IMG/VR virus record: IMGVR_UViG_3300027759_000486
Span: 1 to 21,595 of that record
Direction: 5' to 3' (one strand)
DNA: 21,595 bases
Origin: a virus
Under the pieces are notes generated by a model that saw nothing but the letters and a program-made list of their open reading frames with translations, did not search any database and had not been told where the DNA came from. Shown piece by piece: positions 1,973 to 21,595 of the stretch. The translations under genes were made by a program, and so were the position numbers. Position 1 is the first letter of the stretch; each line of letters opens with the position of its first letter.

Positions 1973-4900
1973 ATGGCAACAGCACAAGCAAACAAAAAGG
2001 TGTACGTTTCACCTGGTGTATACACTTCTGAAACGGACTTATCGTTCGTAGCCCAAAGCGTGGGTGTAACGACTTTAGGTGTGGTTGGGGAAACTATAAA
2101 AGGCCCCGCTTTCGAACCAATTTTTATAACTAACTACGATGAGTTCCAAGCCTATTTCGGTGGTACAGAACCAGTGAAATTCGTGAACACACAAATCCCT
2201 AAGTATGAAGCTGCGTATATCGCAAAATCTTACTTACAACAATCAAACCAATTATTCGTAACAAGAGTATTGGGTTTATCAGGATATGATGCGGGTCCAT
2301 CTTGGAGTATCTCTGTAACTGCGAATGTTGACCCTTTAACAATTGGGTTTACTTCGTCATCAGCTGCTACACCATTTACCGCAACATTTACGGGAAGTGC
2401 ATCTGCAAATACAATCACTTTCTTAGATACAACAGAATTACCTTCAGAGGTTGAAGCTAACTTAAATGTTCAATACAGATTGGCAGATGGAAGTACTTCA
2501 ACTTTACAATCTGATTTTAATACTTACATCAGTCAAATTGCTGACACAACATCATTATCTGCAAACACGTCGGTAATGTATGGTTCAATACCTGCTGAAG
2601 ATTGGTATTCGTTGGTTAATCAATACAGTAATCTTAAAAACGTTTATGGTGTTCCAGGAGATGGTGAAATTCAATATAACGATTTAAGTTCGGGTTCTAA
2701 TGATTCTTGGTATTATGCTAACTTTGAGAACTATTCAGGTGATAACTATTCAGGTTATTCTTTTGATTACATTGTTAATACTTTATCTGTTAATGGAGAT
2801 GTGGTTACAGGTACAATATCTGGTAATACATATTCATTCTCAGGAACAGCATATAGTGAATATAATAATATGGTTGTTGCAACTTTACGTTCGAGAGGTA
2901 TTGCTTTATTCAATAATAGTTCTGATTCTGAAAATCACGGACCTATCTATGAAACTACAGGTTTAACTATGGTTTGTGACGGAGCGTATTCTGGTGTAAG
3001 TAAAGACCCTTACGGTACATTCTTAATATCAGGTATTACTAACGATAACAACACGTTCCAATTTGAAACATCATTATTGGCTTCTTCTTCAAAATATCTT
3101 ACAAAAGTATTTGGTGTTGATAATTTTGGTAAATCAAGATTTACGGTTCCTGTTTATGTTGAGGAGGCTTATCAAGCTTCTTTAAATATTGCATATTCTC
3201 AAGGATATATCAGAGGAATTAATTGTAATTTAATTGATTTACCCGATGCTAGAAGTGAAATTAATACATCAATCGCTTACAAATTAGAAAGATATCAATC
3301 ACCTGAAACTCCGTTCTTAGTATCCGAGTTAAGAGGTAATAAAGTTTATGATTTATTTAAATTCATTTCAATATCTGATGGAGATGCTGCAAACACAGAA
3401 GTTAAAGTGTCTATCGCAAACCTTTCATTTAACAACATGTCTTTCGACGTATTAGTTAGAAACTTCTTTGATACAGATTCTAACCCTGTTGTAATTGAAA
3501 AATTCACTAACTGTAATTTAGACCCATTATCTAACAACTTTATTGGGGTTAAGATTGGTACATCAAACGGTGAGTATGCTTTGATTTCAAAGTATATTAT
3601 GGTTGAGATGTCTCCAACAGCTCCAGTAGATGCATTACCTTGTGGATTCCGTGGATACACTCAAAGAGAGTATGAAAATCTTTCTACATATCCTTCACCA
3701 TATATTCAATATAAAACAAAATATTTCTATCCAGGTGAAACAATTGCTAATCCTCCTTTCGGTGGAGCGGGTAATACAACAGAATCTGCTGGTGATGTCG
3801 TAAGAAGAAGTTATTTAGGTTTCTCAACACAATATGGTGTTGATGAGGCTTTCTTACAATATAAAGGAAAACAAAATCCACCTAATTGGATTAGTAACCC
3901 AACTCAAGAGGCTATACCTTGGAACGTTGTTAGTAAAGGTTTCCATATGGACTCAGGTGCTACGGTTGTAACAATCGCTAACACTTTACAAACAAGTGGT
4001 CAAACAGCTTTTGAATGTGGAGATGCTGATTTCAGAACAGACCCAGAATTCCAAGAAAATCCTTATTACTTTATTTACGCAAGAAAATACACAGTATGTT
4101 TTGCGGGTGGATTTGATGGTTGGGATGTCTATAACGAACATAGAACAAATGAAGATAGATTCCAATTAGGTTCTAGTGGTTTCTTAGCGGGAGCTTATCC
4201 TTCTTCAAGATACCCAGCGGCAACAGGAGAAGGTTTATTCAAAAGAATTGTTGTTCAAAATAACACACAAGACTTTGCAAACACGGACTACTACGCTTAC
4301 TTACTTGGTATTCTTACTTACGCAAACCCTGAATCTACAAATATTAACGTATTTGCAACTGCAAGTATTGACTATATTAACAACTCCAACTTATGTGAAG
4401 AGGCAATTGATATGATTCAATTCCAAAGAGCTGATTCGGTTTATATCGTAACAACTCCTGACTATAACATGTATACTCCTGATGCTTCAAGTCAACTTGA
4501 TGTAATCTATTCTCAAGAAGCGGTGGATAACTTAGATAACACAGGAATTGATTCTAACTATACAGCAACTTACTATCCTTGGATTTTAACAAGAGATACA
4601 GTTAACAATACACAAATCTACTTACCACCAACAGGTGAAGTTTGTAGAAACTTAGCTCTAACAGATAATATCGCATTCCCTTGGTTCGCATCAGCGGGTT
4701 ACACAAGAGGTCTTGTAAACTCAATCAAAGCTAGACAAAAACTAACTCAAGAAGATAGAGATACATTGTATCAAGGTAGAATCAACCCTATCGCTACTTT
4801 CTCTGATGTTGGAACAGTAATTTGGGGTAACAAAACTTTACAAGTTGCTGACACAGCTCTTAACAGATTGAATGTTAGAAGATTGTTGTTACAAGCTCGT

Positions 4901-5173
4901 AAGTTGATTTCAGCGGTGGCTGTAAGATTATTGTTCGAACAAAACGACCAAATCGTTAGACAACAATTCTTAGACAGTGTTAACCCAATCTTAGACTCTA
5001 TCAGAAGAGACAGAGGTTTATACGATTTCCGTGTAACAGTTTCATCTTCTCCTGAAGACTTAGACAGAAATACACTTACAGGTAAGATTTACTTAAAACC
5101 TACGAAGGCTTTAGAATTCATCGACATCGAATTCTTCATCACTCCAACAGGAGCTTCGTTTGAAAATATCTAA
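1973..5173 (+). CDS. Contractile tail sheath protein (T4 gp18 family), unusually long
   Basis: The product is 1066 residues, against about 660 for T4 gp18. The N terminus (KVYVSPGVYTSETDLSF, then GVTTLGVVGETIKGPAFEP) is the sheath signature: a PGVY strand that links neighbouring subunits, followed by the first domain up to about residue 100, ending in QLFVTRVLG. Residues about 100-560 are Ser/Thr/Asn-rich and beta-rich and probably form protruding insertion domains. The core resumes around residue 690, with AGGFDGWDVYNEHRTN near 710. The C-terminal domain (about 935-1066, from RINPIATFSDVGTVIWGNKT) ends in IYLKPTKALEFIDIEFFITP, the strand that completes the inter-subunit mesh. Sheath subunits surround the tube and contract to drive it through the envelope. 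There is no Shine-Dalgarno sequence; the ATG follows ATTAATTAAT. A strong hairpin follows the stop, consistent with a highly expressed, mostly monocistronic unit. Confidence 0.92.
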   Translation: MATAQANKKVYVSPGVYTSETDLSFVAQSVGVTTLGVVGETIKGPAFEPIFITNYDEFQAYFGGTEPVKFVNTQIPKYEAAYIAKSYLQQSNQLFVTRVLGLSGYDAGPSWSISVTANVDPLTIGFTSSSAATPFTATFTGSASANTITFLDTTELPSEVEANLNVQYRLADGSTSTLQSDFNTYISQIADTTSLSANTSVMYGSIPAEDWYSLVNQYSNLKNVYGVPGDGEIQYNDLSSGSNDSWYYANFENYSGDNYSGYSFDYIVNTLSVNGDVVTGTISGNTYSFSGTAYSEYNNMVVATLRSRGIALFNNSSDSENHGPIYETTGLTMVCDGAYSGVSKDPYGTFLISGITNDNNTFQFETSLLASSSKYLTKVFGVDNFGKSRFTVPVYVEEAYQASLNIAYSQGYIRGINCNLIDLPDARSEINTSIAYKLERYQSPETPFLVSELRGNKVYDLFKFISISDGDAANTEVKVSIANLSFNNMSFDVLVRNFFDTDSNPVVIEKFTNCNLDPLSNNFIGVKIGTSNGEYALISKYIMVEMSPTAPVDALPCGFRGYTQREYENLSTYPSPYIQYKTKYFYPGETIANPPFGGAGNTTESAGDVVRRSYLGFSTQYGVDEAFLQYKGKQNPPNWISNPTQEAIPWNVVSKGFHMDSGATVVTIANTLQTSGQTAFECGDADFRTDPEFQENPYYFIYARKYTVCFAGGFDGWDVYNEHRTNEDRFQLGSSGFLAGAYPSSRYPAATGEGLFKRIVVQNNTQDFANTDYYAYLLGILTYANPESTNINVFATASIDYINNSNLCEEAIDMIQFQRADSVYIVTTPDYNMYTPDASSQLDVIYSQEAVDNLDNTGIDSNYTATYYPWILTRDTVNNTQIYLPPTGEVCRNLALTDNIAFPWFASAGYTRGLVNSIKARQKLTQEDRDTLYQGRINPIATFSDVGTVIWGNKTLQVADTALNRLNVRRLLLQARKLISAVAVRLLFEQNDQIVRQQFLDSVNPILDSIRRDRGLYDFRVTVSSSPEDLDRNTLTGKIYLKPTKALEFIDIEFFITPTGASFENI

Positions 5174-5213: not shown

Positions 5214-6041
5214 ATGAGAAGAATAGTAGAAGGATTTAAATCAGAGCATACACCAGATATGAAATATTATGCATTCGATTGGGATGATAATATTGTTCAC
5301 ATGCCGACTAAAATAGTTTTGAAGACTGAAGACGGTGATGAGGTAGGTATGAGTACTGATGATTTTGCAGAGTATAGACAGGACATTGGAAAAAAACCAT
5401 TTGACTATAAAGGTGAAGTGGTTGTTGGTTTTGCTGATGACGCTTTTAGAAACTTCAGAACTGCGGGAGATAAAGATTTTTTGATTGATGCGATGACGGC
5501 TAAAAAAGGTCCTGCATTTGATGACTTTAAAGAGGCTATCAATAACGGTTCGGTTTTTTCAATAATCACTGCAAGAGGTCACAACCCAAGTACTTTAAAA
5601 GAAGCGGTTTATAATTACATCATCAATGGATTTGGTGGTATAGATAAAGACCAACTAGTTAAGAATCTTAAAAAATATAGAACATTTTCTGATGAAGAAG
5701 ATATGTCTGATGATGATTTAATTAGGTCTTATTTAGAACTTAATAGGTATCACCCTGTATCGTTCGGTAATGATGGAAGTGCTGCAAGTCCTGAAGAATT
5801 AAAAGTAATGGCGATGGATGAATTTGTGGACTATGTTAAAGGATTAGCATCATTACTTAATAAAAAGGCTTATTTAAAGAAAGATATAGGTAATAGATTC
5901 ATACCAGAGCAACCTAAAATAGGTTTTTCAGATGATGATTTAAAGAATGTAGAAAAGATAAGTAAGCATTTTAAAGATAAACCAGATAATATAGTAAAAA
6001 CTTATTCTACTGCTGGAGGAATTAAGAAGGAATATAAATAA
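5214..6041 (+). CDS. HAD-superfamily phosphatase-like protein
   Basis: The product is 275 residues. The HAD motif I is FDWDDN, with the nucleophile Asp22 and the general acid/base Asp24. Motif II is SIITARG, with Thr119. A likely motif III lysine lies in the KNLKKYRTF segment (150-158). The motif IV area, SFGNDGSAASPEELK (183-197), has Asp187 and a downstream Glu but lacks the standard DD or GDxxxD spacing. About 95 residues between motifs I and II leave room for a cap domain over the active site. HAD enzymes hydrolyse phosphate esters of nucleotides, sugars or proteins; no substrate can be read here. The C terminus ends with VKTYSTAGGIKKEYK. An ATG at residue 16 (MKYYAFDWDDN) is an alternative start that keeps all motifs. 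The gene sits between sheath and tube behind a terminator, has no TATTTAT leader motif, and is probably weakly expressed. Whether it is a virion component or a cargo gene is unknown. Confidence 0.68.
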   Translation: MRRIVEGFKSEHTPDMKYYAFDWDDNIVHMPTKIVLKTEDGDEVGMSTDDFAEYRQDIGKKPFDYKGEVVVGFADDAFRNFRTAGDKDFLIDAMTAKKGPAFDDFKEAINNGSVFSIITARGHNPSTLKEAVYNYIINGFGGIDKDQLVKNLKKYRTFSDEEDMSDDDLIRSYLELNRYHPVSFGNDGSAASPEELKVMAMDEFVDYVKGLASLLNKKAYLKKDIGNRFIPEQPKIGFSDDDLKNVEKISKHFKDKPDNIVKTYSTAGGIKKEYK

Positions 6042-6135: not shown

Positions 6136-6624
6136 ATGGCTGATTTACTAATGAAAATGCCGATTCCTTACGAACCGAAACGTCAGAACCGATTCATCTT
6201 GAGGTTTCCTTCAAGTTTGGGGATTAATGAGTGGTTCGTGGAAAGTACGAAAAGACCATCTATCAAAATTGCTTCAACAGAAATACAATTTTTAAATACA
6301 TCAACATATGTTGCAGGTAGATTCAACTGGGACGAAATGACAGTTAAGTTTAGAGACCCAATTGGACCGTCAGCGGCTCAAGCTCTTATGGAGTGGGTTC
6401 GTTTACACGCAGAGTCTGTAACAGGTCGTATGGGATACGCAGCAGGTTATAAGAAAGACATTGACTTGGAGATGTTAGACCCGACAGGTGTTGTTGTTGA
6501 AAAATGGATTCTTTACGGAACCTTCCTAACAAGCGTGGACTTCGGTTCTTTAGGGTATTCAACAGACGCTTTAGCAGACATCACAGCAAGTCTTCGTCCT
6601 GACCGTTGTGTGTTGGTTTACTAA
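6136..6624 (+). CDS. Tail tube protein (T4 gp19 family)
   Basis: The product is 162 residues, practically the length of T4 gp19 (163). It begins MADLLMKMPIPYEPKRQNRF, with the usual N-terminal strand followed by the RFILRFP sequence. A central RFNWDEMTVKFRDPIGPSAA is a typical phage tube motif (strand, then a loop with the DPIGPSAAQAL helix). The C-terminal half carries LEMLDPTGVVVEKWILYGTF and VDFGSLGYS. Subunits form hexameric rings that stack into the rigid tube inside the sheath. The gene follows a TATTTATAA leader and is followed by a hairpin terminator, in keeping with very high expression. Its arginine codons differ from its neighbours: five of ten are CGT, whereas AGA dominates elsewhere, which suggests selection for translation rate. 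Confidence 0.93.
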   Translation: MADLLMKMPIPYEPKRQNRFILRFPSSLGINEWFVESTKRPSIKIASTEIQFLNTSTYVAGRFNWDEMTVKFRDPIGPSAAQALMEWVRLHAESVTGRMGYAAGYKKDIDLEMLDPTGVVVEKWILYGTFLTSVDFGSLGYSTDALADITASLRPDRCVLVY

Positions 6625-6695: not shown

Positions 6696-7439
6696 ATGGA
6701 CAATCAAACATCAAATTACGCACAATCTAATTTCACACTCCCTCATGACGTGGTACCATTACCATCACAAGGAGTGTTTTATAAAAACAAAAAGAAATCT
6801 GTTAAGGTGGGTTATCTTACCGCTGCAGATGAAAACATTCTTTTATCAGGTGGCGAAGATATTACTACTAATTTAATTAGAACTAAACTATATGAACCAG
6901 ACATTAGAGTCGAGGATTTATTAGAAGGTGACGTTGAGGCAATCCTTGTTTTCTTAAGAAATACATCATTTGGACCTGAAATCACATTAAATGTGACAGA
7001 CCCTAACACAAGAAAGGTATTTGAAACAAACGTTGTTTTAGATGAATTATCTATTGTGAATGGTCAAGAACCATTAGAAGATGGAACATTTATAATTACA
7101 TTACCAAAATCAGAGGCGACTATTAAAATAAGACCAATGACATATGGTGAAATAATGGACATTAACAAAATGGCTGAGTCATATCCACAAGGAAGAACAG
7201 TACCAAGAGTTACTTGGAGATTAAATAAACAAATTGTTGAAATAAATGGAAGTCAAGATAAAGGAGAGATTGCCAAGTTTATTGAACAAATGCCAATCAT
7301 GGATTCCAAATTCATAAGAAAATTTATGGATGACAACGAACCAAGATTAAACATGAATAGAGTAGTAACAACCCCATCAGGAGATAGACTGACAGTTAAC
7401 GTCGGTTTTGGGGTGGAATTTTTTCGTCCTTTCTTCTGA
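6696..7439 (+). CDS. Tail assembly chaperone, zero-frame product (T4 gp26 / T4_baseplate family)
   Basis: The zero frame gives 247 residues ending at TGA. Near the N terminus is DVVPLPSQGVFYKNKKKSVK followed by VGYLTAADENILLSGG, the family pattern of a proline/glycine-rich strand, then a helix opening T-A-A-D-E. Further on come IRVEDLLEGDVEAILVFLR and the segment FIITLPKSEATIKIRPMTYG. T4 gp26 is about 208 residues; it is needed for hub assembly but is absent from finished baseplates, so a chaperone role is likely. The frame closes abruptly in GVEFFRPFF, and a 50-codon reading frame carries on in +1. The gene directly precedes the tape measure, the usual chaperone position in tailed phages. 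TGA is the only non-TAA stop among the closed genes of the window, as expected for a stop that is bypassed. No Shine-Dalgarno sequence is visible, and the start lies at the foot of a terminator. Confidence 0.78.
   Translation: MDNQTSNYAQSNFTLPHDVVPLPSQGVFYKNKKKSVKVGYLTAADENILLSGGEDITTNLIRTKLYEPDIRVEDLLEGDVEAILVFLRNTSFGPEITLNVTDPNTRKVFETNVVLDELSIVNGQEPLEDGTFIITLPKSEATIKIRPMTYGEIMDINKMAESYPQGRTVPRVTWRLNKQIVEINGSQDKGEIAKFIEQMPIMDSKFIRKFMDDNEPRLNMNRVVTTPSGDRLTVNVGFGVEFFRPFF
7419..7426 (+). other. Probable +1 ribosomal frameshift site
   Basis: Zero-frame codons here are TTT TTT CGT. tRNA-Phe on the second TTT (7422-7424) can move one base to TTC (7423-7425) with full pairing, placing GTC (7426) next and opening the +1 frame. 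The +1 frame is closed upstream by a TGA at 7390-7392, so the shift must fall between 7393 and the zero-frame TGA at 7437. A -2 slip would give almost the same product; a -1 slip leads quickly to a stop. Confidence 0.6.
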
Positions 7440-7578
7440 TTATAGAAAAGGTCAATTAGATGAATTTTATTATTTGAGTACACTAATGAATGTTGCATGG
7501 CAAGATTTTGAAAAAATGCCAATTTTTGTAAGAAAATATTTGTTGGATAAATGGATTGAAGAACACAAGAGGGACTAA
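7426..7578 (+). CDS. Tail assembly chaperone, +1-frame C-terminal extension (gp51-like role)
   Basis: Fifty codons in the +1 frame run from GTC to TAA at 7576-7578. They encode VLSSDYRKGQLDEFYYLSTL, then MNVAWQDFEKMPIFVRKYLL and a basic tail, DKWIEEHKRD. The Tyr-Tyr helix, an acidic turn and the MP-x-x-x-R helix look like the C-terminal helical part of the gp26/chaperone family. Fused with the zero-frame part this gives about 293 residues. The extension has an internal ATG at 7486 but no leader or ribosome site, so an independent product is unlikely. In other tailed phages the minor, frameshifted chaperone binds the tape measure and the tube protein. A true mutation or a sequence error in the six-T run could produce the same picture. 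Confidence 0.65.
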   Translation, partial: VLSSDYRKGQLDEFYYLSTLMNVAWQDFEKMPIFVRKYLLDKWIEEHKRD

Positions 7579-7617: not shown

Positions 7618-9453
7618 ATGGCAGAGAAAAAAGAATCCGCGGAAGAGTATGGTAAATCAATGTCGGATGCCATATCCTTTGGTTCGGAACAATGGATAGG
7701 TGCTGTTGGACAAATGCTTGAGGCGGGTAACGAACTTACCAAAGCCTTCACACAATCTCGTGCCAGAGTAAGTGAGATGATGACGGCTGTTAATGAGGCT
7801 GCTCCGAGAATGAGAAGACTTGGTGCTAGCTTTGAACAGACAATGTCTACGATGAAAGAAATTGCTGTGGCTACAGGTAAAAATACTTTAGCTTCGGCAG
7901 ATAGTGTTGCTAAATTATATGCAACTTCTATAGTTCTAGAACAAAGTACAGGAACTATAGTCAAAAACTTTGAAGGTGCGGGGATTCAATTTGGTGTTGT
8001 CGGTGCACAATTAGAAGAGGCTACCAACAGTGTTCGAGATATGGGGTTAAATGCCAAAGAAGTAATGCAAGATGTGGTTACAAACGCATCAAATCTCAAT
8101 AAGTTTAATTTCGAGGGAGGTGTTCAAGGGTTAACAAGAATGGCGGCGAGAGCAGCTCAATTGAAAATTGACATGAATACCGCTCTTGATTTTGCTGACA
8201 GAATGATGGACCCCGAAAATGCAATTGAAATGGCATCCGCATTCCAAAGACTTGGTGTTACAGCTGGAAACCTCGCAGACCCATTTGCATTAATGAATCA
8301 ATCTATTAATGACCCGGGTGCGTTACAAGAAAGTTTAGCAAAAGTTGGTAAACAATTCACATACTTTGACGAGAAAACAAAATCCTTTAGAATTAATCCC
8401 CAAGGGATATTGACGTTAAAACAAATGGAGAAGGAGGCTAATTTGGCTGGTGGTACACTATCTAAAGCAGCTTTAGCCTCTGCGGAGCTAGATAAAAGAC
8501 TTTCAAATATTAATCCTAGCATTAATTTCAAAGATGAATCAGACAAACAATTCTTAAGTAATTTATCTGAAATGGATGCGTCTGGTAACTATGTTGTTAA
8601 AATTAGTGACCAAGAAACTAAAAAACTTAGTGATGTAACCCAACAAGAATTTGATAAGTTAATTACTGAACAAAAGAATCAGCCTAAGTCAATGGAAGAG
8701 ATTGCCAGAGCTGGTATGAAAACAAGTGATATTATTAGAAATGATGTTACAGCCATTAAAGAGGCGGTTGTTAGAGGCGCGGTAGGAACAACGGTAGTTA
8801 AAGACAATTTTGAGGCATATAGAAAAATTACCACAACACCAACGGGTATTTTATCTGACAAAGTAGGTAGAACTGAAATTTTTAATAAACAGTTTGAAAC
8901 ACTTAGTAAATCAATTAGAGATGCTGCTGGAGAATTAGTCAAAAGTGATGGAAAATCTATGGGTGATGTGTTGAAAGATTTAGGTAGTAAATTTGGAAAA
9001 CAAGGTGATGATGTTAAAAAGATTGTTGAACAACTTGGTATTTCTGTTTATAAAGATATTAAAGGAAAAGATTTAAGTTATAGGTCTTCTGAAATAGGTG
9101 ATTTAGCAAACAAGGCATTAAGAGGACTTGAATCGTATATTGATGACACTAGTTTTGGTAAAAAAGCCGCAGCAACAGGTACTAAGAGTGGTACAACAGT
9201 AAAACCAACAAGTGGAAAATCTTCATTACTTGAAGGAACTGATGCATTTACAAGTAGTACAAGCAAAGACAAAACATTAACATCAACAGTAAATCAAACC
9301 GTTGATTATAGTGGAACAATCGTATTCAAAGTTGACGCACCAGCTGGTGTTAGTACACAATACCTTACAGACTTTTTGAATAGTGAAAAATTCAAGGAGC
9401 AGATATACACATATGTTCAAGAAAAAAACAAACAAAAAGAAAAGACGAAGTAA
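7618..9453 (+). CDS. Tape measure protein (T4 gp29-like)
   Basis: The product is 611 residues, close to T4 gp29 (590). It is largely alpha-helical, Ala/Gln/Lys-rich and without a signal peptide. The N-terminal third shows long amphipathic helices (AEEYGKSMSDAISFGSEQW, then VGQMLEAGNELTKAFTQSRA). The region from about 70 to 210 repeats Ala/Met-rich helical stretches such as GGVQGLTRMAARAAQLKIDM. A Ser/Thr/Lys linker follows around 515-560, and the C terminus carries VDYSGTIVFKVDAPAGVSTQ, like the folded end of tape measures that holds the baseplate hub. At about 1.5 Angstrom per residue (known for tape measures) the length predicts a tail of roughly 90 nm. The gene lies right after the chaperone and before the baseplate genes. 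No peptidase or lysozyme insertion is visible. Confidence 0.82.
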   Translation: MAEKKESAEEYGKSMSDAISFGSEQWIGAVGQMLEAGNELTKAFTQSRARVSEMMTAVNEAAPRMRRLGASFEQTMSTMKEIAVATGKNTLASADSVAKLYATSIVLEQSTGTIVKNFEGAGIQFGVVGAQLEEATNSVRDMGLNAKEVMQDVVTNASNLNKFNFEGGVQGLTRMAARAAQLKIDMNTALDFADRMMDPENAIEMASAFQRLGVTAGNLADPFALMNQSINDPGALQESLAKVGKQFTYFDEKTKSFRINPQGILTLKQMEKEANLAGGTLSKAALASAELDKRLSNINPSINFKDESDKQFLSNLSEMDASGNYVVKISDQETKKLSDVTQQEFDKLITEQKNQPKSMEEIARAGMKTSDIIRNDVTAIKEAVVRGAVGTTVVKDNFEAYRKITTTPTGILSDKVGRTEIFNKQFETLSKSIRDAAGELVKSDGKSMGDVLKDLGSKFGKQGDDVKKIVEQLGISVYKDIKGKDLSYRSSEIGDLANKALRGLESYIDDTSFGKKAAATGTKSGTTVKPTSGKSSLLEGTDAFTSSTSKDKTLTSTVNQTVDYSGTIVFKVDAPAGVSTQYLTDFLNSEKFKEQIYTYVQEKNKQKEKTK

Positions 9454-14539: not shown

Positions 14540-14862
14540 TGGCATATTCATATTATAATCGATACAGTGAATTCATCATCAATGGTGAACAGACTGTTGT
14601 GCCATTTGTTAATATACCATCAAAACCAACAGACCAAACCTTTATTTATAAAGTAGGTAGAAGTAGGTTGGATAAAGTTTCTCAAGAATTTTATAATGCT
14701 CCATACTTTAGTTGGTTAATATTACAAGCAAATCCTGAATTTGGTGGATTAGAAAATAATATTTATGACGGTGCAGTATTGATTATTCCATTTCCTCTCA
14801 TAGCTTCCTTACAGGACTATAAAGGTGCGTTAGAAAATTATTTTTATTATTATGGCAGGTAA
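14539..14862 (+). CDS. Small LysM-like baseplate wedge protein (T4 gp53 / P2 gpX type)
   Basis: The product is 107 residues. After a YNRYSEFIINGE opening it shows a LysM-like pattern: IYKVGRSRLDKVSQEFYNAP, YFSWLILQANPEFGGLENNI, then YDGAVLIIPFP. This is strand, helix, helix around a Trp and an AN turn, and a G-x-x-L-x-IP strand. T4 gp53 and P2 gpX carry the same kind of module; in gp53 it clamps the baseplate wedge to its neighbours. T4 gp53 is about 196 residues, so only the core module is present here. It shares one base with the gene before (TAATG) and overlaps the next by 11 bases, making a tightly coupled baseplate unit. Confidence 0.75.
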   Translation: MAYSYYNRYSEFIINGEQTVVPFVNIPSKPTDQTFIYKVGRSRLDKVSQEFYNAPYFSWLILQANPEFGGLENNIYDGAVLIIPFPLIASLQDYKGALENYFYYYGR

Positions 14863-17800
14863 CCTACAAGCTGATAACAGCGGGAATATATTAGTGGATT
14901 TTGATTATAATAATCTTATTGTGGTTGACCCAAATAAGACTATTGATAATATGGGTAAAATCCGAGAAAGACTTGTAGACCACGAGAATTTGGTTATGTA
15001 TGCAAATCTTGAAGCGGAAATTATTCCAAGAACAAAATTATCGGTGGGAGGAAGTCCTGAAGATAGAATTAGAACAATATCTGTTGCTAAAATTAATTTT
15101 CTAAAACCAACTAAAAATAATTCTTTAGGTACGGGTTATTATGATGAATTAACAGGAGAAAATTCTACAAAATTTCAAGCGGTTAATCAACCTAAAGAAA
15201 GTGTAATTAATTTTGGAAACGGTGAAAAACCATACATAAAAAATAGTGTTGCGGATGAAACCAACGTTATTGATACAGGTTTATTAGGTATTACAAGTAT
15301 TAATATTAGAACGGGTACATCCTTTATTCCAAGTGTTGATATCGAGCTTGAGGACATTCAGGGAAAAGCGTTATTTGAACTTGGTAATAATTCACCCTAC
15401 GCTGCTTTTTTTAACCTACCATATTGTCCGTTTTATTTAACCTTAAAAGGCTATTATGGACAGGCAATAAGATATCAATTAAATCTGCACACATTTAATG
15501 CGAGATTCAACTCATTCAGTGGGAACTATCAAGTAACATTAAATTTTAAGGGATATAAGTTCAATATCTTAAATGAGATTGCATTCGGTCATTTATTGGC
15601 TGCACCTCACATGTACTCTCAAAGATTTCAAATAACACAATCTCCAACTGAAGGCCAAAATGCCAATGCATCAAAAGATGCTACCCAAATAGCTAATTCT
15701 GGTGTTGGTACGACAAGTACTAATAATGTAACTGCGGAAATCGTTGCGGAAAGAGGTTATCAAAAGGTTGTTGAGATTTATAGTGAGTATAAAGCCAAAG
15801 GATTAGTTGCTCCTGATTTTCCAGAATTGACGGTTCAACAATTAATGAATAAACTTGCAAACTTTGAACAAGCAATTGTTAACTCATATAAGAAATCAAA
15901 TGTTGAACCATTAACTAACATTAGAACATATAAACAAAAACTAACTGATTATTTTGCAAATGTGAGAGGTTCTGAATCATCGTGGTTTAATACCTATTGT
16001 GATGTAAAACCAATAGTTTTAAGCGGAGGTCAAAATGTTTATGCGTTCAAAGCAAACATAGATGATGCAGCAAAGGCTGAGGCAAAATCAAAACTTTCTG
16101 ATTTAGTTGCAAGATATAATATTGCGTTGGCGGAAAATCCGACATTAGGTAAAACCGGAACATCACCAATAACAAATCCAATAAAATACGACGATTTTTT
16201 CAAAGATGTTAATTATAGTGATATTTTATTAGAGGACACAGTAAGAAGTCAAACAGGAATTGTTCAACCAACAACTGCGGATACATTAAATGTTGTAACT
16301 AAATTACTTAAACAATTAAAACCTGCTTTTGAAGTTGAAAAAAATGCAACTCTTGATTCATTTAAGAGTATTGTTTTCCCACAATTTATTGTGTTTGAAG
16401 GTGACAAAAAGTTTGACAAGAATATTGCCAACATGGAGACACAGGCTAATGCTAAATTATCTGAGGTGGAAACATTATTGTCTGCAGACTTGGCGAGAAA
16501 AATTGAAGATAAAGCTACAGGGTTAGGTTTTAAACCTACAGTAAGAAATGTTATTGCTGTTCTTATGGCTTCCGCTGAGGCGTTTATTAGATTGATGGAT
16601 GATGTTCATACTAATGCATGGAATGTAAAATACGACCCAATTAGAAAGGCGGCAATATTGGACAATCCATCATCCGCACCTGGTTCAGATACCGTACAGG
16701 TTGTTAAGATTTCAACATCTGCGCAACAATCAAATCAAGGATTATCTACCTCTCAAATACCCGTTTATCCTTGGCCTCAATTTTTTGTAGAAACCCCCGA
16801 AGATAAAAAAGGTAGGTTTCAATTAAAGTATCTTGCAGACCCTTCTGTGGTTAATCTTACTAAAGGTTATCTGTATGATAAATGGCCTGAGGTTGAATTT
16901 GTTGAAGAATATATGAGAGGATTGACTCAAAAATTTCAAAATCCTCTTACTCAACCATCAATAGGTACGGAAAATAAAACAATAATAACTAACGTTAATG
17001 CGATTGAATTTCCAAATGAGGGTATTGCATATCTTAATAAAGAAGAGATTAAATTCTTCTATGAAATTTGGGAGAGACAATATGTTACAGCGTTCTATTC
17101 AAATTACGTAAGGTTATTAGGAAACAATAATGGTACTGATGTATTTCAAAAATATAACACACTTTGTGAGTCATCGAATATTGTAAAAAGTTTAGGTGGA
17201 GGTTCACCATATTTAACCGTCAAGTTAAAGAACTTAGATATCAATGCCTCAAATTTCCAAACAACATTACAAACAATTTCCAACCAAGGGACTGGTAGAG
17301 CTTATCAAGATTTCATTAGAGACTTTTACATTACACCATATCTTAAAGCAATTACTGAAACTTCATTCTCTATTTTGGATGTAAATAATACAGGAAAAAT
17401 ACCAGTAGCAGCACCAGACCCAAAGGCTTTAACTGAGATTGTTAAGGGGGCGTATAACACTCCAATGTTATTAGATACGTATCCATTTACTGACCCTACA
17501 TGGTGTTTACGTAATATGGATACTTCACCTAAAAATACTAATGATTTAGTTTATAATACAAATAAAACATATAAAGTTTTTTCGGATAATAATGTTATTG
17601 CTAATTTCAATGATATAACAAATTATAGTGTTAACAGACCAGTAACAAACTTTTCATATTTGAAAGTTTCAAACCCTTCAGATGGATTATCTAATAATAC
17701 TTTAAGTTTCTTTTATACTTTCAGACAAATAAAAGACTTCTTCCCAACGGAAGGGTATTGTTATTTCCCATCACCGGTATCAACTTTTACGGCCCAAACA

Positions 17801-20800
17801 ACGACATCAATTATTAACACCCCATTTTTTGTAAACGCAATTCAAAATGGTGTTTATAATCAAAGAAGAAGTGACTTATATCCATATGTTCAAGGGGCTT
17901 ATCTTTTTATTAACTCTTTACCATTAATTTCATTAAGAGAAAGATATAAGACATACGATAATGGTAATGCCACTGATTTGGACTATATGGCATCCGTATT
18001 CAAAAAATTTGGTGCACTTCATAAAGTCCCTTACGCTTGGGTATTAAAGATGGGTTCTATTTGGCATAGATATAAAAGATATACAGAAACAGGTATTGAT
18101 ATATTAGATACTGCATGGACAAACTTTGATTATATTACTAACTACGACCCAGTAGGGGCTTCAGTTGCTCGTGAATATAGTTATCAAGTTAAAGGTGTTG
18201 ATGGACAAATTACAACAGAAAAGATTGTTCTTCAAAGCGAAACAACAACCCGAATTACAATACAAAATGGATTCTACCCTAAACTTGTTAATGACTTCAA
18301 CTACTTCTACAACGGATATGATTTATATCAAAACTATACAAACGAAGAAATACAACAAAGTTTGAATAGAGGGATGAGGTTATTCTCCATTAAAGAATCA
18401 AATATCAACTCGGTTCTTCAAGGGGATAAATACGTTGATGTTAAGCCTTTTAGTGTTATGATACCTGACTTAATTGATAACACAACTAAAGCTGAAGATG
18501 CTTGTGTTCCTGCTAATAATAGTGTTGGATTAGAATATTATGTTGTACCTTCTTTTGGTACTGTACTTAATCAAACTGCCGCACAGTGTATTAGTAACAA
18601 TAGGACTGTTGTTAATTTAAGTAGTAACCAATCAATGTATAATGGAAGTGTCAGGACATTATGGGCGGCACCTAACTATGGGTATTTTGATTCAACAACT
18701 ATCATTAAACCAAGGCCGGATTCTTATATGAACTATATTAATCCACTATCTTCAAATGTAACGTTATCTTCGAATCAATCACCAATGACACTTCTTTCGG
18801 GAGATACCTACTCTAAGATAGAGGAAATTTTTTCTGTGTTCGATAAGTCAATTTTAAATCAATTTGAACAAGAGTTTTTGAATTTCTGTAAACCAAACAA
18901 CACTTTAAATGGGGCGTTAAGTGTTGTAGGTGTTGGACAATCACCAATAGATACCAATGCTAACTTTAAGAATTTCCAAGCGTTGATGAGAACCTTGATG
19001 ACAGTACCGGCTCAAAACGGGGGAACTGAGGAACAATACTTTAAAGACACAGCGGCGACACAATCTCAAGTTTTTGCATCTAACATTAAAAGTTTTATGG
19101 AGTATGATGTTCTATTGAGATATGGTAATCCTGGAAATTATAATAGAAGAGTTTTCAATTCATTTATTAATGATGTTATAGACCCAATTAATTTTGGATT
19201 CTATCAAAAAGGAACGTTACCAACATTAGGGGGTAATGTTAGTCTTGCTCAAAGTCAGGCAAGTTATCCATTACAATGGGCCGCTCTAAGAACTGAGGTG
19301 GGATTTTCAACAATAGAAAACTTGGTTTACACCGATAGAGGTTCGTACATTACAGACTTCTTTGTTGATAACAATATTGCATTCACGGTTCCAAATATCA
19401 CATTATTATCACAATTAATTAAGATATATGCAACTAGAAAGTTATTAGACCCAACAATAACAAGTACATCATTTAAAGACCAAATTACTCAATTTATTTC
19501 TAACGGTAGTAACCTACAAAGTCTTTTTATAAATGATACAATGTCTTCAATCAGAGCAACATTACCACCACAATCACAACTACCTGAAAGAGTAATTCAA
19601 TCAGTTATAGACGGACAACAATCCAAAGTTGAAAACTATGAAATGTTTAAGGCTCTTAACGATAAATGGATTGCCGGTGGAGACTACAAGACAAAGACAT
19701 TATTTGAAGATATGTTGTTCTTAGACAGAGCGTCAAGAAACATCGGTGACACAGTTATCATAGATATATTTGATTTACAAAATGTTTTAAACCAAAACGC
19801 CTATACCGAATCAATGAGCGTATTCACATTGATTAGTGGAATTTTAATTAAGAATAACTTTAATGTTATGCCATTACCGGCATATGTTAACTTCTATAAT
19901 GTACAAGACGTTACAGGTGTTAATTTTACAAAAAGTGAAGGTTCGTTAGCATTTGCTAATAATATGTGGGGAACATTTTTAAATGTTGACTATAGAGACT
20001 CGGGTCCAAAAATGGTTTGTTTTTATGTTGGTAAACCTTCAGAGTATTTGAACTTGCCAAAAGGTAATTTTAGATTTAGAGATGATAGTTTTGAGATGAG
20101 AAGAGCATCTGAAAATCCTTTAATTGAGAATATGCAAAATAAGAAGGATTATGGTTTGTCAAATAGGTGTGTTGGTTTTAATGTTGAGATAGGAATAAGA
20201 AATCAAAATGTGTTCTATTCGTTCCAAGTTTCTCAAGAAGCTGGTAAAGCAACATCTGAATCAATTAATACCGAATTGAATATGATTAACCAAGCAAATG
20301 GTAGAAATGTTGCAACTCAAAACGTTAGTTTGTATAATTTGTATAAACAAAGAAGTTATAAGTGTACTGTACAATGTTTAGGTAATGCGTTATTGCAACC
20401 TACAATGTACTTTAATTTACAACACGTACCAATGTTTAATGGACCATATATGATTACAGATGTTTCTCATGCTATTAGTCCTGGTGGTTTTGAAACAACT
20501 CTTACCGGTGTTAGACAAGGTATGTTTGATTTGCCAGCAATAGATAGTTTCTTACAAAGTATTAATCAAAATCTTTTAACTAAAATTGAACAAGCGGTAT
20601 TAAATAAAAAAGACGAACCACCTAATCCTGCTATTGCATCAACGGACATCAATAAGGCGGCTAAAATAGTTCAAGAAGCAGATGCAAAAACAGCGGAACA
20701 AAACTCTTGTACTGCAAAGTTAAACCCAATTTACAGTGAGCAGGGATGGGTTACAGATGTTGCTCAAACAACTTCGTTATCTGAAAAAGCGCTTAGAGAT

Positions 20801-21595
20801 GCAATTGTTTCTGGAACAACTAATGGAATACTTCAGACAATTATTTACTGTATTTGTTATGTTAGAACATATCAAACAGGACCTAAAACATCAACATTTG
20901 CTGGAGTAAATAATAACTTTGCTTCTGTTACATTAGATTTAGATTACGGTAATAATAATGTATATTTTACTCAAGCCCAAAAGAAGTATGTTTGTTTAGA
21001 TGTTGCCAAGACTAATTCAACAACAAAAACAAGTACTAATGTTTTACCAATTGCAAACTTTGAAAACGTCGGCAGGTTCGTTAATTTTATGATTTCTAAA
21101 TTGCAACCCAATATCCAAAGAATAACACAAATGGGACTAACTAAATATTATGTTTGTTATTGGCCAACAAGTAATTTAACAGAAGAATATTACGAAACTA
21201 ATAAAGATAAGGAATTTAAAACAGTACAAGCAACTTTTGAGAAGGCAATTAAATCTGCAAATGGGTTAGGATTACCTGATTTGGATGGTGTTTACGTTAA
21301 TGGAACTACAACATCAGGAACAACTACAGGAACAACTACAACTACAGGAACAACTACAACTACAGGAACAACTACAACAACAGGAACGACTATAACCTCA
21401 GGAACAACAACTACTGTTAAATGTTTACCTCCAACAATAGCATCATTTACACCAACGTTAGGAGGTGAGAATACAATTTTAACAATTAAAGGAAAACAAC
21501 TTGATTCAGTAACAGCGGTCACATTTAATAATAATGTGAATGTTATTAAAGGGCTTATCAAATCTAAAGACGGAACTCAGATTATTGTTACGGTA
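14852..21595 (+). CDS. Giant baseplate hub-like protein with C-terminal IPT/TIG domain (incomplete at window end)
   Basis: The frame is open from the ATG at 14852 to the window edge, at least 2248 residues. I translated it through without meeting a stop. Residues about 149-256 have SVDIELEDIQGKALFELG, then SPYAAFFNLPYCPFYLTLKG and YYGQAIRYQLNL, and at about 1834-1890 RSYKCTVQCLGNALLQPTMY followed by FNGPYMITDVSHAISPGGFE. Both look like conserved blocks of large-phage hub proteins (T4 gp27 / gpD role); the long middle is unrecognised. Residues about 1951-2130 have a lysozyme/glucosaminidase flavour (TFAGVNNNFASVTLDLDYG, then a short IANFENVGRFVNFMIS segment), not firm enough to assign. A Thr/Gly linker (2151-2188) leads to an IPT/TIG domain from 2192 (LPPTIASFTPTLGGENTILT, then IKGKQLDSVTAVTF), an immunoglobulin-like fold common in surface and receptor-binding proteins. 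The start overlaps the gp53-like gene. Hub and host-binding roles are inference. Confidence 0.66.
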   Translation, partial: MAGNLQADNSGNILVDFDYNNLIVVDPNKTIDNMGKIRERLVDHENLVMYANLEAEIIPRTKLSVGGSPEDRIRTISVAKINFLKPTKNNSLGTGYYDELTGENSTKFQAVNQPKESVINFGNGEKPYIKNSVADETNVIDTGLLGITSINIRTGTSFIPSVDIELEDIQGKALFELGNNSPYAAFFNLPYCPFYLTLKGYYGQAIRYQLNLHTFNARFNSFSGNYQVTLNFKGYKFNILNEIAFGHLLAAPHMYSQRFQITQSPTEGQNANASKDATQIANSGVGTTSTNNVTAEIVAERGYQKVVEIYSEYKAKGLVAPDFPELTVQQLMNKLANFEQAIVNSYKKSNVEPLTNIRTYKQKLTDYFANVRGSESSWFNTYCDVKPIVLSGGQNVYAFKANIDDAAKAEAKSKLSDLVARYNIALAENPTLGKTGTSPITNPIKYDDFFKDVNYSDILLEDTVRSQTGIVQPTTADTLNVVTKLLKQLKPAFEVEKNATLDSFKSIVFPQFIVFEGDKKFDKNIANMETQANAKLSEVETLLSADLARKIEDKATGLGFKPTVRNVIAVLMASAEAFIRLMDDVHTNAWNVKYDPIRKAAILDNPSSAPGSDTVQVVKISTSAQQSNQGLSTSQIPVYPWPQFFVETPEDKKGRFQLKYLADPSVVNLTKGYLYDKWPEVEFVEEYMRGLTQKFQNPLTQPSIGTENKTIITNVNAIEFPNEGIAYLNKEEIKFFYEIWERQYVTAFYSNYVRLLGNNNGTDVFQKYNTLCESSNIVKSLGGGSPYLTVKLKNLDINASNFQTTLQTISNQGTGRAYQDFIRDFYITPYLKAITETSFSILDVNNTGKIPVAAPDPKALTEIVKGAYNTPMLLDTYPFTDPTWCLRNMDTSPKNTNDLVYNTNKTYKVFSDNNVIANFNDITNYSVNRPVTNFSYLKVSNPSDGLSNNTLSFFYTFRQIKDFFPTEGYCYFPSPVSTFTAQTTTSIINTPFFVNAIQNGVYNQRRSDLYPYVQGAYLFINSLPLISLRERYKTYDNGNATDLDYMASVFKKFGALHKVPYAWVLKMGSIWHRYKRYTETGIDILDTAWTNFDYITNYDPVGASVAREYSYQVKGVDGQITTEKIVLQSETTTRITIQNGFYPKLVNDFNYFYNGYDLYQNYTNEEIQQSLNRGMRLFSIKESNINSVLQGDKYVDVKPFSVMIPDLIDNTTKAEDACVPANNSVGLEYYVVPSFGTVLNQTAAQCISNNRTVVNLSSNQSMYNGSVRTLWAAPNYGYFDSTTIIKPRPDSYMNYINPLSSNVTLSSNQSPMTLLSGDTYSKIEEIFSVFDKSILNQFEQEFLNFCKPNNTLNGALSVVGVGQSPIDTNANFKNFQALMRTLMTVPAQNGGTEEQYFKDTAATQSQVFASNIKSFMEYDVLLRYGNPGNYNRRVFNSFINDVIDPINFGFYQKGTLPTLGGNVSLAQSQASYPLQWAALRTEVGFSTIENLVYTDRGSYITDFFVDNNIAFTVPNITLLSQLIKIYATRKLLDPTITSTSFKDQITQFISNGSNLQSLFINDTMSSIRATLPPQSQLPERVIQSVIDGQQSKVENYEMFKALNDKWIAGGDYKTKTLFEDMLFLDRASRNIGDTVIIDIFDLQNVLNQNAYTESMSVFTLISGILIKNNFNVMPLPAYVNFYNVQDVTGVNFTKSEGSLAFANNMWGTFLNVDYRDSGPKMVCFYVGKPSEYLNLPKGNFRFRDDSFEMRRASENPLIENMQNKKDYGLSNRCVGFNVEIGIRNQNVFYSFQVSQEAGKATSESINTELNMINQANGRNVATQNVSLYNLYKQRSYKCTVQCLGNALLQPTMYFNLQHVPMFNGPYMITDVSHAISPGGFETTLTGVRQGMFDLPAIDSFLQSINQNLLTKIEQAVLNKKDEPPNPAIASTDINKAAKIVQEADAKTAEQNSCTAKLNPIYSEQGWVTDVAQTTSLSEKALRDAIVSGTTNGILQTIIYCICYVRTYQTGPKTSTFAGVNNNFASVTLDLDYGNNNVYFTQAQKKYVCLDVAKTNSTTKTSTNVLPIANFENVGRFVNFMISKLQPNIQRITQMGLTKYYVCYWPTSNLTEEYYETNKDKEFKTVQATFEKAIKSANGLGLPDLDGVYVNGTTTSGTTTGTTTTTGTTTTTGTTTTTGTTITSGTTTTVKCLPPTIASFTPTLGGENTILTIKGKQLDSVTAVTFNNNVNVIKGLIKSKDGTQIIVTV
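21302..21415 (+). repeat. Period-18 tandem repeat encoding a Gly-Thr linker
   Basis: Units of GGAACAACTACAACTACA repeat in phase: 21329-21346 and 21347-21364 are identical, 21365-21382 differs by one base, and 21383-21400 and the flanks are diverged. Each encodes Gly plus five Thr. The 18-base period preserves the reading frame, so copy number could change the linker length without breaking the gene. Confidence 0.85.

What the first reader, a model, noticed from the sequence alone, without database searches (positions are those of the whole stretch)
7393..7578. Programmed +1 frameshift in the tail-assembly chaperone gene
The zero-frame gp26-like ORF stops at TGA 7437-7439, but the +1 frame is open from 7393 to TAA 7576-7578 and continues a plausible C-terminal helical domain. 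The shift must occur between 7393 and 7437, where TTT TTT CGT (7419-7427) permits a perfect tRNA-Phe slip to TTC. TGA is the only non-TAA terminator among the closed genes. Chaperone frameshifts of -1 (lambda) and -2 (Mu) are well known; +1 is rarer, and I know of no such shift for the T4-type gp26. The shift would fuse the two parts that T4 keeps as separate genes 26 and 51.
Basis: partly seen in the sequence, partly recalled or inferred. Interest (0 to 1): 0.75.

Follow-up and report, generated by a model that had tools for sequence, protein, structure and literature searches.

The report
Tail chaperone made by +1 frameshift
A phage tail-building helper protein is made in a short and a long form because some ribosomes skip one base at a fixed TTT-C site, a layout kept in every one of more than 100 distinct relatives and preceded by a conserved RNA hairpin that was not part of the original observation.

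Summary
The zero frame ends at TGA 7437-7439 and a +1 frame is open from 7393 to TAA 7576-7578. All close relatives examined keep this layout (116 distinct gene sequences). The +1 tail evolves as protein-coding sequence, and the other two frames carry stops. A sequencing error is excluded. Comparative evidence puts the slip at TTT-C, 7422-7425. That Phe codon never changes on the tree (0 changes, against 4-18 at other conserved Phe codons). The next codon is almost always CGY, although other Arg codons are mostly AGA. Distant relatives keep TTT-pyrimidine, or use -1 at T TTT TTY on the same Phe-Phe codons. The zero frame belongs to the T4 gp26/gp51 family. A conserved hairpin (7371-7414) lies just upstream of the slip, shows covariation, and is more stable than synonymous recodings; I propose it as a stimulator. 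T4-type chaperone pairs and frameshifting chaperones are known. What appears new is +1 recoding at UUU-Y in this family, its interchange with -1 at the same codons, and the hairpin. No protein evidence exists yet.

The parts
6696..7439 (+). Zero-frame gene: short chaperone form (247 aa, ends ...VEFFRPFF*), T4 gp26-like
   Evidence: PF12322 E 9.4e-9 above curated cut-off; phrog_150 E 8.1e-14; AlphaFold model resembles gp26/hub-subunit models
7422..7425 (+). Inferred slip site TTT-C: P-site tRNA-Phe moves from TTT 7422-7424 to TTC 7423-7425
   Evidence: Phe codon invariant, 0 changes on tree against 4-18 at other Phe codons; TTT-Y kept in distant +1 users
7425..7427 (+). Rare zero-frame Arg codon CGT in the A site
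   Evidence: 110/110 Arg at this position are CGY; in the window's genes CGT is 15 and CGC 0 of 233 Arg codons
7426..7578 (+). +1-frame tail VLSSDYRKGQ...KWIEEHKRD, C-terminal domain of the long form (293 aa in all), stop TAA 7576-7578
   Evidence: Open and under coding selection in all close relatives; tail profile aligns with the last 28 residues of T4 gp51, weakly
7371..7376 (+). Outer stem of upstream hairpin, 5' arm ACCCCA
   Evidence: CCCC invariant; pairs with 7409-7414
7409..7414 (+). Outer stem 3' arm TGGGGT; ends 7 nt before the slip codon
   Evidence: GGG Gly codon 7410-7412 invariant, 0 changes on tree against 8-26 at other conserved Gly codons outside this element
7389..7393 (+). 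Inner hairpin 5' arm CTGAC
   Evidence: Middle pair G-C / A-U / G-U covaries
7401..7405 (+). Inner hairpin 3' arm GTCGG
   Evidence: As above; mean z -3.05 against codon-usage-preserving recodings in 23 representatives
7379..7383 (+). AGGAG, Shine-Dalgarno-like, in the internal loop
   Evidence: GGA codon 116/116 with 0 changes on the tree; role unknown
7618..9453 (+). Downstream gene, probable tape measure protein (611 aa)
   Evidence: PF10145 phage minor tail E 3e-6, below curated cut-off; annotated tape measure in the same place in immuto and phiXF1
6136..6624 (+). Upstream gene: tail tube
   Evidence: phrog_4542 tail tube E 2.2e-25

Best explanation
This is a two-product tail-assembly chaperone gene of a T4-type contractile-tail phage. 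Most ribosomes stop at TGA and make the short form (247 aa). A fraction shift +1 when tRNA-Phe in the P site slips from UUU (7422-7424) to UUC (7423-7425) while the rare CGU codon waits in the A site. They then read 7426-7575 and make a 293-aa long form with an extra C-terminal domain. By analogy with lambda gpG/gpGT, the short form would coat the tape measure protein and the long form would recruit tail tube subunits. The conserved RNA hairpin 7371-7414, at the mRNA exit side when UUU is in the P site, probably stimulates the shift. Shown by sequence: the layout, coding selection on the tail, codon-level constraint at the slip, and the hairpin. Inferred: that shifting occurs and how often, the hairpin's role, and the assembly function.
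For: Layout conserved in 116 distinct relatives. Coding selection in the +1 tail. Slip Phe always TTT, 0 changes on tree. Following codon CGY 110/110, or CTC in the L157 group, always giving TTT-C, though AGA is the usual Arg codon. TTC TTT C in L031 shows no dependence on the six-T run. Distant +1 users keep TTT-Y: L082, L083, L086-L088, L090, L104, L190-L193. UUU_Ynn is documented as especially prone to +1 shifting, and the influenza cassette is UCC_UUU_CGU (PMC5009743). Hairpin: 98.7% of cells paired, 0/500 shuffles, slid controls 28-53%; mean z -3.05 against synonymous recoding. T4 gp26 (short) and gp51 (long) are in the same family.
Against: No peptide, ribosome profiling or reporter data. 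The hairpin is lineage-specific and is not seen consistently in distant +1 users. The tail's likeness to gp51 is weak (7 bits). The Foldseek match to the HK97 chaperone has E 1.3. A Pro-codon slip at CCT cannot be fully excluded.
Confidence: 0.88

Rival explanations
1. +1 shift at the proline codon CCT (7428-7430), giving ...FFRPSSDYR.
For: CCT is invariant; Pro codons are used for +1 in Listeria phage PSA (PMC5009743); CCC TAA occurs in the L086 and L087 relatives.
Against: CCT to CTT breaks the middle pair. This does not explain the invariant TTT or CGY instead of AGA. The invariant CCT TTC TTC is explained by +1 coding of Leu-Ser-Ser.
Confidence: 0.07
2. -2 shift (as in phage Mu) on TTT TTT, reaching the same frame.
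For: Possible by pairing in the window itself.
Against: L031, L034 and L037 (TTC TTT C) and the distant users L083, L086-L088 and L190 keep the frame but cannot re-pair well after -2.
Confidence: 0.02
3. The +1 tail is a separate gene started on its own.
For: Distant relatives L085, L099 and L103 carry the domain as a separate ATG ORF.
Against: In the window the first +1 ATG is at 7486, inside the domain, and is not conserved; no +1-frame start codon is conserved among relatives, some of which have a +1-frame stop just before the slip site.
Confidence: 0.02
4. Transcriptional slippage on the six-T run, or a sequencing error or pseudogene.
For: There is a T6 run at 7419-7424.
Against: L031-type relatives have no run longer than three T at the site yet the same layout. 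Error and decay are excluded by conservation in over 100 sequences.
Confidence: 0.01

Closest known systems
T4 gp26 / gp51 tail-assembly chaperone pair (PF12322, phrog_150)
   Same: Same N-domain family; short form ends at the EFF motif (profile position 235 in gp26, 232 here); long form carries a C-terminal domain
   Different: T4 uses two separate paralogous genes; here one gene with a +1 shift
Cyanophage (S-CAM8, S-RIM8) and XacN1 gp26-type genes
   Same: Same kind of gene; recoding at the same Phe-Phe codons, with the tail in another frame
   Different: -1 frame, with a T TTT TTY heptamer
Lambda gpG/gpGT
   Same: Short and long chaperone by frameshift near the 3' end, upstream of the tape measure gene
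   Different: -1 slip; sequence similarity not tested here
UUU_Y +1 shift sites (influenza PA-X UCC_UUU_CGU, YopN-TyeA, rhizobial ICE)
   Same: Same P-site codon and, for influenza, the same A-site codon CGU
   Different: Different genes; the phage site has a conserved upstream hairpin
Halorubrum myovirus HSTV-2 and Listeria PSA +1 shifts
   Same: +1 frameshift in a phage tail or structural gene
   Different: HSTV-2 is a haloarchaeal virus whose chaperone I did not compare; PSA shifts at Pro CCC in capsid and tail shaft genes

Membership tests
T4-type tail-assembly chaperone (PF12322 / phrog_150) | Match to the family N-terminal domain | tested here: met
   PF12322 E 9.4e-9, above cut-off; phrog_150 E 8.1e-14
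T4-type tail-assembly chaperone (PF12322 / phrog_150) | Gene position between tail tube and tape measure | tested here: met
   Tube at 6136-6624; tape measure call for 7618-9453 rests on weak PF10145 and synteny
T4-type tail-assembly chaperone (PF12322 / phrog_150) | Long form with gp51-like C-terminal domain | tested here: inconclusive
   Tail profile hits the last 28 residues of gp51 at 7 bits only
Frameshifted phage chaperone pair (G/GT type) | Conserved overlapping frame giving short and long products | tested here: met
Frameshifted phage chaperone pair (G/GT type) | -1 slippery heptamer X XXY YYZ as in lambda | tested here: not met
   Tail is in the +1 frame; GAA TTT TTT gives no -1 heptamer. 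The wider group also includes -2 and +1 users (PMC5009743), so this excludes only the lambda subtype
Frameshifted phage chaperone pair (G/GT type) | Both products made, neither in the virion | not testable with these tools
   Needs protein data
Frameshifted phage chaperone pair (G/GT type) | HK97-like chaperone fold | tested here: inconclusive
   2ob9 found with TM 0.48 by target length, prob 0.47, E 1.3
UUU_Y +1 frameshift site | UUU followed by pyrimidine, rare A-site codon | tested here: met
   TTT CGT; CGY is 6% of Arg codons in the window's genes
UUU_Y +1 frameshift site | Measured +1 product | not testable with these tools
   No expression data

The most novel reading that the evidence does not exclude
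The conserved two-tier hairpin 7371-7414 is a new kind of +1 stimulator. It sits 5' of the slip site and refolds at the mRNA exit of the ribosome when UUU is in the P site, pushing the ribosome forward. In this chaperone family the direction of recoding (+1 or -1) has switched between lineages on the same two Phe codons.
Probability: 0.4. Interest if true: 0.75.

Novelty: new variant of a known kind. Interest (0 to 1): 0.58.

Why it matters
A major review describes chaperone frameshifting as conserved in long-tailed phages except T4 (PMC5009743), and later work proposes separate genes for some T4-like phages. This locus shows that T4-type chaperones also use +1 recoding, in a large group of environmental phages. 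One codon pair supports both +1 and -1 shifts in different lineages. The long form's tail is missed or misannotated in published genomes. The upstream hairpin offers a clean natural system to test whether structure behind the ribosome promotes forward shifting.

Tried and rejected
Rfam found no known element near the site above its curated score. The downstream region shows no conserved structure. Upstream hairpin in distant +1 users: not consistent, so not a general feature of the family. A search of prokaryote genome contigs gave no host. Scanning IMG/VR with L083 gave only one relative (L188) and with L087 none. The 2022 T4-like chaperone paper is not held, so I could not check whether it already lists +1 cases. 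Literature searches found no report of a +1 shift in gp26-type genes.

Full report
Observation. The zero-frame gene 6696-7439 (247 aa) ends TTT TTT CGT CCT TTC TTC TGA. The +1 frame is open from 7393 to TAA 7576-7578. The window is a 21.6-kb virus record. TGA is the only non-TAA stop among the nine closed genes.

Conservation. A scan of IMG/VR found 377 relatives and kept 80; a second scan with an alignment added 80. All close relatives have the same arrangement: the zero frame ends after FFRPFF (or FFRPFFGL, or FFLPFF in the L157 group), and a +1 tail F[VAS]LSS[DNE]YRK...MPxFxRKYLLxKW (with minor variation) continues 44-47 codons past the stop, except where the contig ends first. The zero-frame stop varies (TGA, TAA, or TAG two codons later), so the shift does not depend on a particular stop codon. 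In 42 representatives the tail varies mainly at third positions of the +1 frame, with 8972 synonymous and 3319 non-synonymous pairwise differences; 0/42 have stops in that frame and 42/42 in each other frame. This excludes sequencing error and decay.

Where the shift happens. Relatives with GTA GAN have a +1-frame TAG just before GAN TTY TTT C, so the shift lies at or after that point. In 116 distinct sequences the second Phe codon is always TTT. On a tree of 109 distinct sequences it has 0 changes, against 4-18 at other conserved Phe codons. The next codon is CGT or CGC in all 110 sequences with Arg there, although AGA dominates elsewhere (192 of 233 Arg codons in the window's genes, CGT 15, CGC 0). 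The L157 group replaces Arg by Leu but uses CTC, again keeping TTT-C. Slipping from UUU to UUC keeps full pairing with tRNA-Phe. A shift at CCT would explain neither the TTT nor the CGY constraint. A -2 shift or RNA polymerase slippage is disfavoured by L031-type sequences (TTC TTT C). [quoted passage not shown] The window has UUU_CGU.

Distant relatives. +1 with TTT-pyrimidine: huge phage LR756508 (TTT CTA), Streptococcus phage GXN1 (TTT CGT), QdP_Psa3 and phiXF1 (TTT CCC TAA), the L088-L098 group (TTT TGG), L104, immuto (TTT CTT), Mel-JY01 and RM378 (TTT TGG), SP-15 (TTT CAC). -1 with T TTT TTY at the same Phe-Phe codons: XacN1, L188, S-CAM8, S-RIM8. Separate ATG ORF: LR756511, L099, L103. 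In QdP_Psa3 and phiXF1 the tail falls in an unannotated gap before the next gene (annotated as tape measure in phiXF1), and in immuto it is partly annotated as a short separate ORF.

Family. The short form matches PF12322 and phrog_150. T4 gp26 matches phrog_150 positions 14-235 and gp51 positions 13-280 of 282; both match PF12322 over its whole length. So gp26 and gp51 are paralogous short and long forms, and the window's short form matches up to position 232, close to where gp26 ends. The tail profile aligns with the last 28 residues of gp51, weakly. An AlphaFold model of the short form (pLDDT 84.6) matches gp26/hub-subunit models in the viral library, and the HK97 chaperone 2ob9 appears in the PDB list without significance (TM 0.48 by target, E 1.3). 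That some T4-like phages keep one short and one long gene is published (ref. 44 in PMC10885494; ref. 76 in PMC12846349).

Upstream hairpin. Near the slip, two Gly codons (GGG 7410-7412 and GGA 7380-7382) show 0 changes on the tree, against 8-26 at the other conserved Gly codons. CCCC (7372-7375) and GGGG (7410-7413) are invariant and pair. An inner stem CTGAC/GTCGG covaries: G-C in 20, A-U in 45 and G-U in 3 of 69 sequences, with several changes on each side (6 and 5) on the tree. Overall 98.7% of cells pair, 0/500 shuffles reach this, and slid controls give 28-53%. Only one pair has changes on both sides, so covariation alone would be modest. Against recodings that keep protein and codon usage, the mean z is -3.05 over 23 representatives. 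The hairpin ends 7 nt before the slip codon. No Rfam family matches at its curated score. It is not consistently present in distant +1 users, so I treat it as a lineage-specific stimulator. That role is inferred. Alternatively the GGGG may act through the 16S tail, though the window's genes mostly lack Shine-Dalgarno sequences.

Verdict. A conserved +1 programmed frameshift in a T4-type tail-assembly chaperone, on comparative evidence only. The kind is known; the direction in this family, the switch of direction on one codon pair, and the upstream hairpin make it a new variant. Whether the 2022 study already lists +1 members could not be checked.

Noticed in passing
L086 3158-3323; L087 3188-3347: In published phages QdP_Psa3 and phiXF1 the +1 tail of the chaperone is unannotated, at TTC TTT CCC TAA, where both UUU-C and CCC-U could slip.
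   Followed up: partly
L084 3238-3498: Xanthomonas phage XacN1 'baseplate hub subunit' and the next ORF look like one -1 frameshift pair (T TTT TTT A).
   Followed up: partly
window 7379-7383: AGGAG, with an invariant GGA codon, in the hairpin's internal loop, about 40 nt before the slip site; role unknown.
   Followed up: partly
window 1973-5173: Tail sheath of 1066 aa; the best family match covers residues 849-1064, suggesting a large insertion.
   Followed up: no
window 5214-6041: 275-aa gene between sheath and tube with no Pfam match; contains DWDDNIVHMPT, like a HAD-type phosphatase motif.
   Followed up: no
window 14852-21595: Very long ORF (at least 2248 aa, runs off the end) with a Thr/Gly repeat stretch near its end.
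   Followed up: no
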